This document shows positions 1 through 5,889 of a stretch of 6,037 nucleotides of DNA, one piece after another. The position numbers and the translations under genes were made by a program. The stretch is from Alphaproteobacteria bacterium (GTDB lineage: Bacteria; Pseudomonadota; Alphaproteobacteria; RF32; UBA3637), in NCBI GenBank assembly GCA_017414845.1, contig JAFQJY010000163.1:1-6037 (forward strand). Direction: 5' to 3'. The first letter of the stretch is position 1. The number at the start of each line of letters is the position of its first letter. Under the pieces are notes generated by a model that saw only the letters and a program-made list of their open reading frames with translations, made no database searches and was not told the DNA's origin.

Positions 1-363
1 GAAAAGGTATCGGACAAGATTTATGCAAATAAAGGTGTTTTGCGTCGTGAGATTTTAGAAGCGGATATCGGGTCTGATTTGGCACAAACATTTTTAGCGT
101 ATGCAAAAAATCCGCCATTATCTTTGGAAGATGTCATAGAGTGTAATTATGAGGATAAAGATATTCCTGAGAGACAGGATGCTCGTTTGGCAATGGTACT
201 GAGTTTGCGTCATGCTTCACCGCGACAGGTCGGAATAGTCAGAGAATTTATCAAAGATAATTTGGGCGCTGAAAATTGTGCGATATTTGATTCCGTGTGG
301 GCTGGGAAAGATGATACAAAAGCCCTTCAAATTGCGAAACTGCGTGCGAATGGGGGAAGATAA
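1..363 (+). CDS. C-terminal part of a probable MoxR-like AAA+ ATPase (partial, 5' end outside window)
   Basis: The frame is open from base 1 to a TAA at 361-363, giving 120 residues with no credible start, so this is the 3' end of a longer gene. A TTG at 40 is in frame but has no good Shine-Dalgarno and is probably just an internal Leu codon. The fragment is mostly predicted helix, with stretches such as LSLEDVIECNY, ARLAMVLSL and VGIVREFIKDNLG, and contains no Walker motifs. That fits the C-terminal helical lid of an AAA+ ATPase. The main support is context: the operon continues into an AAA+-like protein and a DUF2201 metallopeptidase/VWA protein, and COG3864 genes commonly neighbour MoxR-type (COG0714) ATPases. 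The likely role is ATP-driven remodelling of a partner protein. That the reading frame is coding is nearly certain; the ATPase assignment is an inference. Confidence 0.6.
   Translation, partial: EKVSDKIYANKGVLRREILEADIGSDLAQTFLAYAKNPPLSLEDVIECNYEDKDIPERQDARLAMVLSLRHASPRQVGIVREFIKDNLGAENCAIFDSVWAGKDDTKALQIAKLRANGGR
352..357 (+). promoter_or_regulatory. RBS of the AAA+-like gene at 365
   Basis: A purine-rich GGGGGA lies 7 nt before the ATG at 365, inside the last codons of the upstream ATPase gene. It favours this ATG over an in-frame ATG at 278, which would overlap the ATPase reading frame by 86 bases and has no comparable site. Confidence 0.55.
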
Positions 364-364
364 A

Positions 365-817
365 ATGTCAGTAATTGAAACACTTAAAAAACGTTCCGAA
401 AAACATAAAAACGGTTTGGTTATTGAGGCAGATTGGGGTTGGCTTGGTCCTAAACCGGCTAAAACACGGGCCGAGAAAATTCGTCAAATCAAAACGGAAT
501 ATATAGATGACAGGGCACTTTTGACCATCGGGGCAACGGTAAGTGATTTTGAGGAATATACCTGTATTTCTGCAACCGTTTCCGTACAAGAATTGATACA
601 GTTTGTGGCAGAACTGAAAGGAAATGAGAAGTTTTTGATTATTTCTGATATGGACAAAGCCTCTTTTGAAGAACAGGAAAAGTTTGTCCCCTTGCTGAAA
701 AACAGGCAGATTATGTCCGAAACATTGCCGAACGATGTTCAGATGATTATTCCTGCTTCTGATGAAGAACAGGTATCTAAAAATCTCAGAAAGTATGTTT
801 TTACAATAAAGGTGTAG
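365..817 (+). CDS. Small AAA+-like protein with degenerate nucleotide-binding motifs
   Basis: This 150-residue protein starts one base after the previous stop and ends one base before the next start, so it is translated as part of the operon. Residues 90-131 follow the AAA+/MoxR Walker B to sensor 1 pattern: a hydrophobic strand, then DKAS, then a helix ending in PLLKNRQI, then LPNDVQMIIPASD. This aligns by eye with the usual LDEIDKAS...LLEER...LP.NVRIIAT layout. The Walker B Asp-Glu pair is replaced by Ser94-Asp95. A possible Walker A relic is GPKPAKT at 28-34, one residue short and lacking the Gly before Lys-Thr. No lid domain follows, because the protein ends soon after the sensor region. 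I infer a non-hydrolysing AAA+-derived accessory subunit of the neighbouring ATPase. It may instead be an unrelated protein with chance similarity. No signal peptide or membrane segment is seen. Confidence 0.75.
   Translation: MSVIETLKKRSEKHKNGLVIEADWGWLGPKPAKTRAEKIRQIKTEYIDDRALLTIGATVSDFEEYTCISATVSVQELIQFVAELKGNEKFLIISDMDKASFEEQEKFVPLLKNRQIMSETLPNDVQMIIPASDEEQVSKNLRKYVFTIKV
808..812 (+). promoter_or_regulatory. RBS of the metallopeptidase gene at 819
   Basis: AAAGG stands 6 nt before the ATG at 819 and lies within the last codons of the preceding gene. This arrangement indicates coupled translation of the two proteins. Confidence 0.6.
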
Positions 818-818
818 A

Positions 819-1454
819 ATGTTGAACGACCGTTTAAAACAGCGTCAGGAAATTCAATATCTCAGAGAACAGTTTTTAAGCAAGTTTCCTCTTTTGGGAC
901 CTACCATGATGTCTTTAAAAACAACAGCCGATGATAGAATAGGAACGGCTGCGACAGACGGTCATACGATTATCTATTCGCCTAAGTTTTTTGCCACATT
1001 ATCTGATGAACAGAAAGAATTTGTTTTTGCACATGAAGTAATGCATGTCGCTTTTAACCATGTTTTGCGCAGTAAAGGACGTGAACAGCGGTTATGGAAT
1101 ATCGCAACTGATTCTGTTATCAATCAGATTTTAAAAAATGAGAACTTACCATTGGTAGAGGGCGGTGTGGACATTGCAGAAGCCGTAAATCATTCGGCCG
1201 AAGAAATGTATGAAAAACTCTTGAAAAAGAAAGAACAGCGAGAGCAAGAAAAACAGCAAGGACAACAGCAAGAACAGCAAGGGCAATCCCAATCCGGTGA
1301 TGCAGAGCCACCGCAAAGTTTATCTGAACAAAATCAATCCGGACAAGAACAACAACAGAATGAACAAAAGGGACAGGAACAATCCAAACAACAATCGGAC
1401 AGTTCGGAAAATCAACCTGATTCAAAATCCGAACAGTCAAGCGATAATCAATAA
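819..1454 (+). CDS. Putative metallopeptidase domain of a COG3864/DUF2201-type protein (N-terminal half, ends at in-frame TAA)
   Basis: The product is 211 residues as read. Residues 1-135 form the putative metallopeptidase domain (DUF2201 N-terminal type), with a zincin motif HEVMH at 72-76, a further His81 five residues on, and the family-like WNIATDSVIN at 93-102. Residues 140-211 are a Gln/Ser/Glu-rich disordered linker made largely of CAA and CAG codons. Family proteins normally continue through such a linker into a C-terminal VWA-like domain. Here TAA at 1452-1454 stops the frame inside the linker, but the same frame runs open to 2465 and encodes that missing domain. A one-base change of CAA (Gln) to TAA would explain this. 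Either the gene is a fresh nonsense mutant or sequence error, or the two halves are made separately or by readthrough. No signal peptide is seen, so action is likely cytoplasmic. Peptidase activity in this family is predicted, not something the sequence proves. Confidence 0.85.
   Translation: MLNDRLKQRQEIQYLREQFLSKFPLLGPTMMSLKTTADDRIGTAATDGHTIIYSPKFFATLSDEQKEFVFAHEVMHVAFNHVLRSKGREQRLWNIATDSVINQILKNENLPLVEGGVDIAEAVNHSAEEMYEKLLKKKEQREQEKQQGQQQEQQGQSQSGDAEPPQSLSEQNQSGQEQQQNEQKGQEQSKQQSDSSENQPDSKSEQSSDNQ
1236..1451 (+). repeat. Gln-rich low-complexity linker with short ACAGCAAG repeats
   Basis: The stretch encodes residues 140-211, dominated by Gln, Ser and Glu. The octamer ACAGCAAG occurs at 1253-1260, 1265-1272 and 1274-1281, and CAA/CAG codons are frequent throughout. 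It is a coding low-complexity tract, likely a flexible tether between peptidase and VWA domains. Such tracts are prone to length variation, and every CAA codon is one transition away from a TAA stop. Confidence 0.75.
1452..1454 (+). other. In-frame TAA interrupting the metallopeptidase/VWA gene
   Basis: The codons run GAT AAT CAA TAA GAC GCC, and the frame is otherwise open from 819 to the TGA at 2463-2465. Between this stop and 1647 the frame has no ATG, GTG or TTG. Other genes in the window end normally with TAA, so a global reassignment of TAA is not supported. Confidence 0.9.
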
Positions 1455-1646
1455 GACGCCTCTAACTCTCAAAACGGACAAGGTTCTTCATCTCAGTCAG
1501 AAAATACCGATTGGGATGACAGTGATATTGATTGGAACAGTGAAGATGAACAAGTCGGTCATGATACCCACGATATTTGGAAAGAGGCTGTAAAACAGGC
1601 TGAGCGGGAAGAACAACGAAAACAAGAACAATCCCGAAAGGGAAGT

Positions 1647-2465
1647 TTGTGGGATAAGTTAAAAGAAGTTATAGGACAAAAAGAAAATTCTGAAAAACAG
1701 GAAGAACATTCTCAAAAAAACGAAGTTTTTGTGCCACAGGATGAAAACAAAGATGCCTATGAAAAGGGTTTTCTTGAAAACAACCGAAGGGAGCGTCATG
1801 TACAGGCAGAACGGATTAGAAAAGAACTGACGGTAGAAAAAAACAGCATTTCTGAGGGTAGGAATTTAGGAGATGTAGGGGTGACACAAACACCTGTCGC
1901 CGATTGGAGGAAAATTTTAAAAAAATCCATAGAGGAAGAAAAAGACCGGTGGTCCTATCGTCGTTCCGGTGCTGAAAATGACTATATGGCTCGTGTTGAA
2001 GAATTGGAAGATGAAGGGCGTCCCGATACCGAGGTAATGCTGGATGCAAGCGGTTCTGTGGATATTCGGTTATTACGTGAATTTTTAAGGCAACTTAAAC
2101 CGTTACTTAAATCCTCTAAATTAAAGGTCGGTTGCTTTGATGACTTTGCTTATGGCTTTAAAGAAATAAAGACTAAAGCGGATATTGACAACTTTCAAGT
2201 TACGTCAAGATTCGGAGGGACTAACGGAGAAGCAGCCGTTCGTGCGTTTTCTAAGAAAAAAGAAGTGAATAAAATTATTTTTACGGACGGGTATTTAGAG
2301 CTGGATTCAATGCCTGAAGAAGATTTAAAAGGCAAAAAAAACATTATTTGGATAGTCTACGAAAATGAAAATTTCAGTCCTTGTTGCGGTAAGGTTATTC
2401 AGGTAAGCAGGAAAAAAATACTCTCTTATGCGTTGAATAGGGCGCATTTGAGAGAAGGGCGTTGA
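1647..2465 (+). CDS. VWA-like (MIDAS) domain, C-terminal half of the interrupted DUF2201-type protein
   Basis: This is in the same frame as the gene at 819 and is most likely its continuation; coding character (Asp/Ser/Gln-rich linker) extends back to 1455. The first usable start after the stop is TTG 1647, preceded by AAAGGGAAG at 1637-1645, whose spacing is too tight to be convincing. The first in-frame ATG is near 1986, at the edge of the VWA domain. Counting from 1647, residues 1-100 are charged linker and residues 127-255 are the VWA-like domain. The MIDAS pattern is complete: DASGS at 133-137, Thr192 in FGGTN, and Asp214 in FTDG. The preceding RWSYRR segment is also typical of the family. 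Such domains bind a divalent metal and often a protein ligand, and they pair with MoxR-type ATPases. Whether this half is translated is unknown; if it is not, it is the dead 3' part of a pseudogene. Confidence 0.65.
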   Translation: MWDKLKEVIGQKENSEKQEEHSQKNEVFVPQDENKDAYEKGFLENNRRERHVQAERIRKELTVEKNSISEGRNLGDVGVTQTPVADWRKILKKSIEEEKDRWSYRRSGAENDYMARVEELEDEGRPDTEVMLDASGSVDIRLLREFLRQLKPLLKSSKLKVGCFDDFAYGFKEIKTKADIDNFQVTSRFGGTNGEAAVRAFSKKKEVNKIIFTDGYLELDSMPEEDLKGKKNIIWIVYENENFSPCCGKVIQVSRKKILSYALNRAHLREGR

Positions 2466-2519: not shown

Positions 2520-2542
2520 AAAGACTTGGAAAGTGATACTTT
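2514..2542 (+). promoter_or_regulatory. Sigma70-type promoter of the HELTH zincin gene
   Basis: The -35 box is a consensus TTGACA at 2514-2519. After a 17-nt spacer the -10 position is TACTTT at 2537-2542, a weak hexamer preceded by TGA, so it has an extended -10 TGn element. Transcription would begin near 2549, leaving room for the RBS at 2557. This gives the zincin gene its own promoter despite lying just after the upstream operon. Confidence 0.5.
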
Positions 2543-2556
2543 TTATCGCTACGGAC

Positions 2557-2563
2557 AAAGGAG
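2557..2563 (+). promoter_or_regulatory. RBS that sets the GTG start at 2572
   Basis: AAAGGAG lies 8 nt before GTG 2572. The in-frame upstream GTG at 2533 falls before the predicted transcription start and has no such site, so 2572 is preferred. Confidence 0.7.
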
Positions 2564-2571
2564 TGTTTTCT

Positions 2572-3537
2572 GTGTTTGCAAGAAAGTTACTGGATTTAAA
2601 AAGAAAAATGATTTACGCTTTTCCCGGAAGTATGACCGGAAAAGTGGAAGATACCTTGACTTGTCTTGCTATGACGCCAACGGGTCAGGATTTAATACCG
2701 CACTGGAATTCAACCTGTCGTGTACGTGTTGATTTTAAAGATAAACGTAAGACAGCGTCGTTCAATTTTGAAAAAGAACCTTATGAATTGATATTATCCT
2801 ATCGTTATTGGAAAGATTCTCAACCGATAGAGTTAGCTCAAAGTTTAGTGCATGAATTGACACATATACGTCAGCATAATGAGGGGTTCTTTTCACATAA
2901 GGGCTTTTCGGTTCGTCAGGTTCTTGTTCATAATAAACTGGCAGAAGCTGAGGCTGTTTTATTGTCTGCTCAGGCAGGAGTTGAACTGGAACGACAAGGA
3001 TTCGGAAAAACAGAACCGTCGCCGGCGATCAATCTGTATAAGTCGCAGATGAAAAAGCAACCTTTTTACTGTTCTTGGGAGGATGTTAAAAGCAGAACAA
3101 TGGCCAGTTGTTTGAAACATTATTTAAAGGCTGATAACCATCCTGATCCGGAGTGGAAAGAGAACTATGATTATGCATCTGCTCAACTGACATTTTCAAT
3201 GATGTGTAAATATCCGAAAAGTTTTTCGGAAAAGGGAAATTATACGGACCATTATGATATTTTATCTAAGTGTGTTTCCCGATATGCTCCTTTTTTAAAG
3301 CCGGAGCAGATAGATACCTTCGGTATTTTTCCAAAGGAAAAACAGTTTAAGTATGTGTTGGATTTGGAGAATGTGCAAAAAGAAATTACCAGAGATACAA
3401 GCAAAACACCGGTTGAAGTTTATGAAAGGGTTCATCCGTCGTTCAAGTCATCTTGTTTCCGTTTTGTCAGGCAGATTGTAAAGCATTTAGATGTTTCCGA
3501 TTTATCTCTTTTAAAAAATAATTCAAAAGTGAGATAG
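2572..3537 (+). CDS. DUF6782-like putative zinc metallopeptidase (HELTH motif)
   Basis: The protein has 321 residues from the GTG at 2572. The zincin motif HELTH is at residues 94-98, within LVHELTHIRQ, and is preceded by a hydrophobic strand at 71-78 (YELILSYR). A nearby acidic run, LAEAEA at 123-128, could supply the third zinc ligand (Glu125 or Glu127), as in gluzincins. This layout matches proteins annotated as DUF6782 putative metallopeptidases. The remaining 190 residues are helical and charged and resemble nothing I recognise. No signal peptide or membrane segment is visible, so the protein is probably cytoplasmic. It has its own promoter and operator-like repeats and is not part of the upstream operon, although that operon also encodes a HExxH protein of a different family. 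The substrate is unknown. Its stop lies one base from the stop of the opposing regulator gene. Confidence 0.85.
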   Translation: MFARKLLDLKRKMIYAFPGSMTGKVEDTLTCLAMTPTGQDLIPHWNSTCRVRVDFKDKRKTASFNFEKEPYELILSYRYWKDSQPIELAQSLVHELTHIRQHNEGFFSHKGFSVRQVLVHNKLAEAEAVLLSAQAGVELERQGFGKTEPSPAINLYKSQMKKQPFYCSWEDVKSRTMASCLKHYLKADNHPDPEWKENYDYASAQLTFSMMCKYPKSFSEKGNYTDHYDILSKCVSRYAPFLKPEQIDTFGIFPKEKQFKYVLDLENVQKEITRDTSKTPVEVYERVHPSFKSSCFRFVRQIVKHLDVSDLSLLKNNSKVR

Positions 3538-5226: not shown

Positions 5227-5889
5227 ATGAGAAAAAGATGTAAAAGTTCCGAATTATATCCTGTTGAAAAAGCAGATATCTACCCGCTTCCCGTTCGGTT
5301 GGAAAATGATATGCCGTCGGATGAAGTTGCTGTATTACTCGGTAACGAGCAAGACGGCACGTCGGATATACTTATCGGGGGATTGGATTTATTGGAGGCA
5401 GATGACCAACCGACGATTCCTGTCCGATTCTATTTTATACCGTCTGTTCATCCGATGAATTTGCCTGTTATCTTGTGCCGAAAACTGCGTTACAAAAAGA
5501 AACGTACGAATATCAATGTGTATCACATCAATCCGAACTGGATACGTCAAAGTGGATTGGAAAGGGCTATAAAGACACGGGAAAATGCGTATAATTTAAA
5601 AAATAAAAAGTATGCAAGACCCTTGGAGGAACGTTTGGAACGTTACGATACTTTAAAACGTCAGATTTTGCAAAAAGGTTGGAAAGATGATGAGCCACTC
5701 ATTATGATGCTCAATCGTCGTTTCGGGTTGAAGGATTGTTTGGATAACGGTCATCATCGGATGAGCATTTGTATAGATGAAAAAATTGAACGGGTAACGG
5801 TAAAATTTGCCTATATGAGCCGAGTTCATCCTGTTTTTGAGCCGTTTATCCGTTTTATGAAACGTTTTATTTATTTTAAAAAGGACTAA
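5227..5889 (+). CDS. ParB/sulfiredoxin-fold-like protein with NGHHR motif
   Basis: The protein has 220 residues from the ATG at 5227. TTG 5188 and GTG 5218 are in-frame alternatives; none of the three has a good Shine-Dalgarno, so the start is uncertain. Residues about 130-205 carry the recognisable part: [22 protein letters not shown], then [17 protein letters not shown] and VTVKF. This matches the ParB/Srx-like pattern, in which a GxHR motif binds or hydrolyses a nucleotide. The family includes ParB CTPases, nucleases and many uncharacterised proteins, and this one lacks the ParB helix-turn-helix region, so a partition role is unlikely. The first 100 residues (IYPLPVRL..., [10 protein letters not shown]) match nothing I recognise. 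The basic, aromatic C-terminus ([14 protein letters not shown]) may be a surface-binding tail. It shares its 3' end with the metK RBS and lies divergent to a glycosyltransferase, so a link to surface glycan synthesis is possible but unproven. Confidence 0.75.
5881..5885 (+). promoter_or_regulatory. RBS of metK inside the end of the ParB-like gene
   Basis: AAGGA lies 5 nt before the metK ATG at 5891 and overlaps the last codons of the ParB-like gene, whose stop ends one base before that ATG. Translation of the two is probably coupled. Confidence 0.7.

What the first reader, a model, noticed from the sequence alone, without database searches (positions are those of the whole stretch)
1452..1454. 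In-frame TAA splits an otherwise intact metallopeptidase/VWA gene within its Gln-rich linker
The frame is open from 819 to 2463 except for this codon. The upstream half has a complete HExxH domain and the downstream half a complete MIDAS pattern. The stop sits among many CAA codons, so one C-to-T change explains it. Loss so recent that nothing else has decayed, a sequencing error, strain-level phase-like inactivation, stop readthrough, or a natural split into two subunits are all possible. The absence of any ATG/GTG/TTG in frame for nearly 200 bases after the stop argues against a tidy two-gene arrangement. TAA followed by G is not a known strongly leaky context.
Basis: partly seen in the sequence, partly recalled or inferred. 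Interest (0 to 1): 0.7.

Follow-up and report, generated by a model that had tools for sequence, protein, structure and literature searches.

The report
Recent stop codon in chaperone-partner gene
One stop codon interrupts an otherwise well-kept bacterial gene whose relatives are mostly a single intact gene, which looks like a very recent mutation or a sequencing error and is an ordinary event rather than a new mechanism.

Summary
One in-frame TAA (1452-1454) interrupts a frame otherwise open from ATG 819 to TGA 2463. The halves match Pfam DUF2201_N and the DUF2201 VWA-like domain and different parts of one phage family. Of 177 proteins held, the window's own included, 140 carry both halves; 7 of 7 whole genomes with strong matches have one uninterrupted frame. 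In 43 hand-picked relatives the column of the stop is Gln in 33. No decay was found: 0 of 54 near-invariant columns after the stop are changed, and against L001 the 64 codons before the first restart (TTG 1647) are as constrained as the N domain. TAA ends 4 of 7 genes here, and no stimulating RNA structure was seen. Best reading: a very recent nonsense change, real or a consensus error, in one ancestral gene beside an AAA+ ATPase gene. Without reads or a second strain the two cannot be told apart. A natural split is unlikely but not excluded: one distant clade is listed only as VWA halves. Low interest.

The parts
1..363 (+). C-terminal end of the upstream AAA+ (MoxR-like) ATPase gene, ending in TAA
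   Evidence: 66% identical over 126 aligned positions to the C-terminal part of the L001 ATPase, whose full protein matches phrog_1297 ATPase at 126.6 bits and Pfam AAA models only below their cut-offs; the name MoxR-like is recalled, not from a model match
365..817 (+). small conserved gene (150 aa) between the ATPase and the interrupted gene, function unknown
   Evidence: 52% identical to the L001 counterpart in the same place, matches in 3 of 7 loci searched; no Pfam match above cut-off
819..1454 (+). upstream half: DUF2201_N metallopeptidase-like domain with HExxH plus half of the Gln-rich linker, ending at the premature TAA (211 aa)
   Evidence: PF13203, 111.6 bits; HExxH at residues 72-76
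1452..1454 (+). in-frame TAA at a column that is Gln in 33 of 43 aligned relatives
1455..2465 (+). downstream half: rest of linker, middle region and VWA-like domain with MIDAS-type residues, open to TGA 2463
   Evidence: PF09967, 35.6 bits; 0 of 54 near-invariant columns changed
1647..2465 (+). 272-aa ORF from the first in-frame ATG/GTG/TTG (a TTG) after the stop; the protein database lists it as P0001
   Evidence: purine-rich GAAAGGGAAG just upstream of the TTG

Best explanation
Until very recently this was a single gene for a roughly 548-residue protein: a metallopeptidase-like domain, a Gln-rich flexible linker and a VWA/MIDAS-type domain, encoded next to an AAA+ ATPase. A single-base nonsense change at a Gln codon of the linker now ends translation after residue 211. 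The cell would then make only the metallopeptidase-like half, and little or none of the VWA half through weak re-initiation at TTG 1647. In the studied NorQ/NorD pair an intact VWA domain is required, so the module is probably inactive in this strain. Shown: the stop, single-gene ancestry, absence of further decay. Inferred: that the change is real rather than an error, the loss of the VWA product, and the coupling to the ATPase.
For: Frame intact but for one codon. 140 of 177 held proteins carry both halves; 7 of 7 whole genomes with strong matches have one open frame with no stop inside. The column is Gln in 33 of 43 aligned relatives. 0 changes at 89 near-invariant columns, 54 of them after the stop. 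pN 0.14-0.29 against pS 0.60-0.76 in the regions compared with L001. If the downstream half were neutral, no change in 54 codons has probability 0.08 at 2% and 0.02 at 3% divergence (rough Poisson estimate assuming 2.3 nonsynonymous sites per codon), so the stop is probably younger than that. TAA ends 4 of the 7 genes whose end lies in the window.
Against: Nothing here tells a real mutation from a consensus error; perfect preservation downstream is what an error would also give. The window's contig is only 6037 bases. A second member sequence sits in the same 90% cluster as P0001 and could not be read. Weak hint of faster change in the VWA half: mean identity to 44 close relatives is 0.73 there against 0.80 in the N domain, while 232 other pairs with N identity 0.78-0.86 average 0.81 in the VWA half, quartiles 0.73-0.86; such divergence is older than the stop if the age bound holds.
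Confidence: 0.55

Rival explanations
1. The stop is a sequencing or assembly consensus error in a short metagenome contig; the living gene is intact.
For: The rest of the gene shows no sign of decay. The contig is only 6037 bases and no whole genome is held for it. The relatives read at DNA level, L001 and the 7 genomes, have no stop inside.
Against: It is a plain substitution, not a homopolymer slip, and single-base substitution errors are uncommon in well-covered assemblies (general knowledge, not tested here).
Confidence: 0.34
2. A true natural split into two genes: the N half ends at 1454 and the VWA half starts at TTG 1647 with its own ribosome site, the halves working as two subunits.
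For: A purine-rich GAAAGGGAAG precedes TTG 1647. Of 177 held proteins 14 are C-half only (one is the window's own P0001; three, P0045, P0078 and P0092, are called partial by their source); 5 come from one related clade (P0099, P0101, P0104, P0108, P0120), 3 of these starting at the same linker Met. Four C-only entries are closer to the window (P0023, P0036, P0044, P0088), and 23 entries are N-half only.
Against: No ATG/GTG/TTG for 192 bases. Against L001 the 64 codons that a split would leave untranslated are as constrained as the N domain (aa identity 0.75 and pN 0.143, versus 0.77 and 0.142). L001 and 7 of 7 genomes with strong matches are fused at DNA level. The half-only entries may be contig ends, gene-calling choices or assembly faults; their DNA could not be read. 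The 43-row alignment does not count here: it was picked from proteins spanning the linker and a protein cannot show a stop.
Confidence: 0.06
3. The stop is read through or TAA is reassigned, so a full-length product is made.
For: Downstream half conserved.
Against: TAA ends 4 of 7 genes in the window, and the ATPase gene ends in the same residues followed by TAA in L001. No other internal stop in the 8 frames counted (1874 codons, 101 Gln codons), though those frames were chosen as open frames, so this is weak. RNA downstream folds no better than shuffles (z 0.28). L001 and the 7 genomes have no stop inside. TAA followed by G is not a known leaky context (general knowledge).
Confidence: 0.03

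Closest known systems
Pfam PF13203 + PF09967 (DUF2201) proteins of Alphaproteobacteria from metagenomes and MAGs
   Same: Same domain order, HExxH, Gln-rich linker and VWA-like domain; an ATPase relative upstream in 7 of 7 loci searched, the small gene in 3 of 7
   Different: 140 of 177 held proteins have both halves in one chain; the window has one stop in the linker
MoxR AAA+/VWA chaperone pairs such as NorQ/NorD (PMC9976466, outline and abstract seen)
   Same: An AAA+ gene next to a gene for a VWA-type domain
   Different: The VWA partner here carries a metallopeptidase-like N domain; substrate unknown; no functional test; the ATPase matches Pfam AAA models only below cut-off
Phage families phrog_1297 (ATPase) and phrog_1314
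   Same: The L001 ATPase matches phrog_1297; the window halves match phrog_1314 at positions 9-206 and 161-392 of 394. One passage of PMC5735904 lists a Delftia phage protein with both DUF2201_N and VWA hits and another with an AAA hit
   Different: The phage profile is one shorter protein; its label 'HNH endonuclease' does not fit the Pfam matches

Membership tests
DUF2201 (PF13203 + PF09967) metallopeptidase-like/VWA proteins | N-terminal DUF2201_N domain above Pfam cut-off with HExxH | tested here: met
   111.6 bits against cut-off 23.2; HExxH at 72-76
DUF2201 (PF13203 + PF09967) metallopeptidase-like/VWA proteins | C-terminal VWA-like domain above cut-off with MIDAS-type residues | tested here: met
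   35.6 bits against cut-off 26.4; DxSxS and TDG
DUF2201 (PF13203 + PF09967) metallopeptidase-like/VWA proteins | both domains in one open frame | tested here: not met
   TAA at 1452-1454
MoxR/VWA chaperone pair | AAA+ ATPase gene next to the VWA gene | tested here: met
   window 1-363 aligns to the C-terminal part of the L001 ATPase, and to a stretch upstream of the gene in 7 of 7 loci searched; L001 ATPase matches phrog_1297 but Pfam AAA only below cut-off, so the MoxR subclass is recalled
MoxR/VWA chaperone pair | VWA protein binds the ATPase ring and remodels a substrate | not testable with these tools
   needs biochemistry
Natural split gene | same break plus start and ribosome site conserved in relatives | tested here: inconclusive
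   not seen in the relatives read as DNA: L001 and 7 of 7 genomes with strong matches are fused; the half-only protein entries could not be read as DNA, and no same-species strain was available
Pseudogene | further decay: extra stops, frameshifts, lost invariant residues | tested here: not met
   none found; only a very young one is allowed
Recoded stop / readthrough | TAA not used as an ordinary stop, or a stimulating structure after it | tested here: not met
   TAA ends 4 of 7 genes in the window; fold z 0.28. Only 6 kb of this genome was available

The most novel reading that the evidence does not exclude
The Gln-rich linker is a tolerated break point in this family: some lineages make the metallopeptidase-like half and the VWA half as separate proteins (perhaps the P0120 clade), and the window has caught the first step of such a fission, with the VWA half restarted at TTG 1647.
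Probability: 0.06. Interest if true: 0.4.

Novelty: new member of a known kind. Interest (0 to 1): 0.14.

Why it matters
As it stands it is one more very young nonsense allele, or a consensus error, in a gene of unknown function, probably of an uncultured alphaproteobacterium (host inferred from its relatives). It would matter more if the halves proved to work apart, since that would show that a VWA domain coupled to an AAA+ ring need not be joined to its metallopeptidase-like domain.

Tried and rejected
Own-genome search: none is held. Viral contigs: no C-half relative, 4 distant N-half loci at 30-33% identity. Phage and plasmid DNA, megablast of the whole window: no match. PADLOC: none for 8 proteins. 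NCBIfam: none for 9 proteins. Placing the host with the 5227-5886 protein: 0 of 200 and 0 of 33 genomes, which the tool says shows nothing. Readthrough structure: z 0.28. tRNA in the window: none. The clade listed as separate VWA halves was followed in viral contigs without result. Relaxed selection after the stop was rejected for lack of any lost near-invariant residue, although VWA-half identity to relatives is a little low for its N-half identity (0.73 against a mean of 0.81 in 232 other pairs, just under their lower quartile). Papers: DUF2201, 4 listed, one seen as a single passage; COG3864, none; MoxR/VWA terms, 35 papers, 12 seen as a listing, of which one outline with abstract and one as passages; a five-term readthrough query, none.

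I corrected one argument: the 43-row protein alignment cannot count against a shared stop, because a protein cannot show one.

Full report
OBSERVATION. The frame 819-2465 has 549 codons with stops only at codon 212 (TAA, 1452-1454) and at the end (TGA, 2463). The upstream half matches PF13203 DUF2201_N (111.6 bits) and the downstream half PF09967 DUF2201 VWA-like (35.6 bits), both over the Pfam cut-offs. The halves also match different, partly overlapping parts of one phage family, phrog_1314 (9-206 and 161-392 of 394), so they are two parts of one protein. The first in-frame ATG/GTG/TTG after the stop is TTG 1647, where the public protein P0001 (272 aa, contig 6037 bases, i.e. this window) begins.

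RELATIVES. The one relative found in genome contigs, L001 (sheep rectum alphaproteobacterial MAG), has the ATPase, the small gene and an uninterrupted 530-aa gene in the same order. Protein searches with the C half (656 hits, 120 listed), the N half (22 hits, all listed) and residues 1-150 of the read-through protein (189 hits, 120 listed) gave 177 distinct proteins, the window's own P0001 among them. By local alignment 140 of the 177 carry both halves, 23 only the N half and 14 only the C half, P0001 among the 14. The nearest other protein is 71% identical over 95% of the C half, and the first 36 rows of the N-domain search are 78-85% identical. So no other listed cluster comes from the same species; the P0001 cluster itself has a second member that could not be read. 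In whole genomes, matches at E 0.001 or better were found in 6 of 183 (family of G001), 7 of 201 (its order; 6 the same genomes, the seventh weak), 11 of 385 (its class; G001 and G418 strong, 9 distant and weak) and 1 of 33 (order of G418, G418 itself). No listed match in these four searches had a stop inside. The 7 strong ones (G001, G014, G015, G116, G144, G160, G418) each have one open frame of 438-596 residues with HExxH; my narrow MIDAS pattern was found in 4 of the 7 and other forms were not tested. In a Pfam-model survey of the same class sample 21 of 385 genomes rang; of 22 rows, one weak match under the cut-off (G577) had a stop inside.

THE STOP. In an alignment of the window (X at the stop) with L001 and 42 hand-picked proteins of the 177, the column is Gln in 33, a gap in 8, Ser in 1 and Gly in 1. 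Some rows are near copies of one another, and two (P0121, P0146) are not full length. The stop thus stands where relatives usually have Gln, not at a domain edge. This alignment cannot show a relative with the same stop, because proteins show none; the DNA-level relatives are L001 and the 7 genomes.

SELECTION. Among 143 held proteins of 430-720 residues, 89 columns are at least 95% conserved; the window departs from none (35 N domain, 11 middle, 43 VWA). Against L001, pN is 0.142 for the N domain, 0.222 for the upstream linker, 0.143 for the 64 codons between the stop and TTG 1647, 0.288 for the middle and 0.153 for the VWA domain, with pS 0.60-0.76, close to saturation, so dS is only rough. 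A rough Poisson estimate makes more than about 2-3% neutral divergence since the stop unlikely if the downstream half is not selected. A weak hint the other way: mean identity to 44 close relatives is 0.80 in the N domain and 0.73 in the VWA domain, just under the lower quartile of 232 other pairs of similar N identity. Most divergence from L001 is older than the stop, so these numbers date the stop; they do not show that the VWA half is made today.

READTHROUGH, RECODING, SPLIT. TAA ends 4 of the 7 genes whose end lies in the window. The only internal stop in 1874 codons is this one, but those frames were chosen as open frames, so that count is weak. The 100 bases after the stop fold no better than shuffles. 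A purine-rich stretch precedes TTG 1647, but the codons before it are conserved as protein against L001, which a settled split would not need. On the other side, five held proteins of one more distant clade (P0099, P0101, P0104, P0108, P0120; the last three standing for 20, 21 and 27 member sequences) are listed as VWA halves with no N domain, and the closest two-half protein held is 59% identical to P0120. Four C-only entries closer to the window (P0023, P0036, P0044, P0088) may be interruptions, contig ends or gene-calling choices.

FUNCTION. MoxR AAA+ proteins and VWA proteins work as chaperone pairs; in NorQ/NorD an intact VWA domain is required and is placed in the pore of the ATPase ring (PMC9976466, abstract). 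By analogy only, the gene here encodes the VWA partner of the upstream ATPase, and loss of the VWA half would disable the pair. The substrate is unknown.

VERDICT. A very young nonsense change, real (about 0.55) or a consensus error (about 0.34), in one ancestral gene. Ordinary.

Noticed in passing
P0099, P0101, P0104, P0108, P0120 (proteins): A related clade whose listed proteins are VWA halves without a DUF2201_N domain; three have a long Gln-rich N-terminal stretch starting at the same linker Met. Possible natural gene fission; DNA not seen.
   Followed up: partly
P0126 (284 aa, contig 21477): N-half protein whose tail looks like an out-of-frame reading of the conserved post-linker region, suggesting a frameshift in the linker of another relative (judged by eye).
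   Followed up: no
window 2533-3537: Downstream ORF with a weak DUF6782 putative metallopeptidase match (28.2 bits, cut-off 27); no counterpart in the 7 loci searched, which have short flanks.
   Followed up: partly
phrog_1314: The PHROG is labelled HNH endonuclease although both halves of this DUF2201 protein match it; the label looks wrong.
   Followed up: no
window 819-1454: The window's own 211-aa N half was not listed in the N-half protein search although P0001 was listed in the C-half search; reason unknown.
   Followed up: partly
genomes around G001: Patchy spread of the gene: 6 of 183 genomes in the family of G001, suggesting gain and loss of the module, or a misplaced contig in the L001 MAG.
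   Followed up: no
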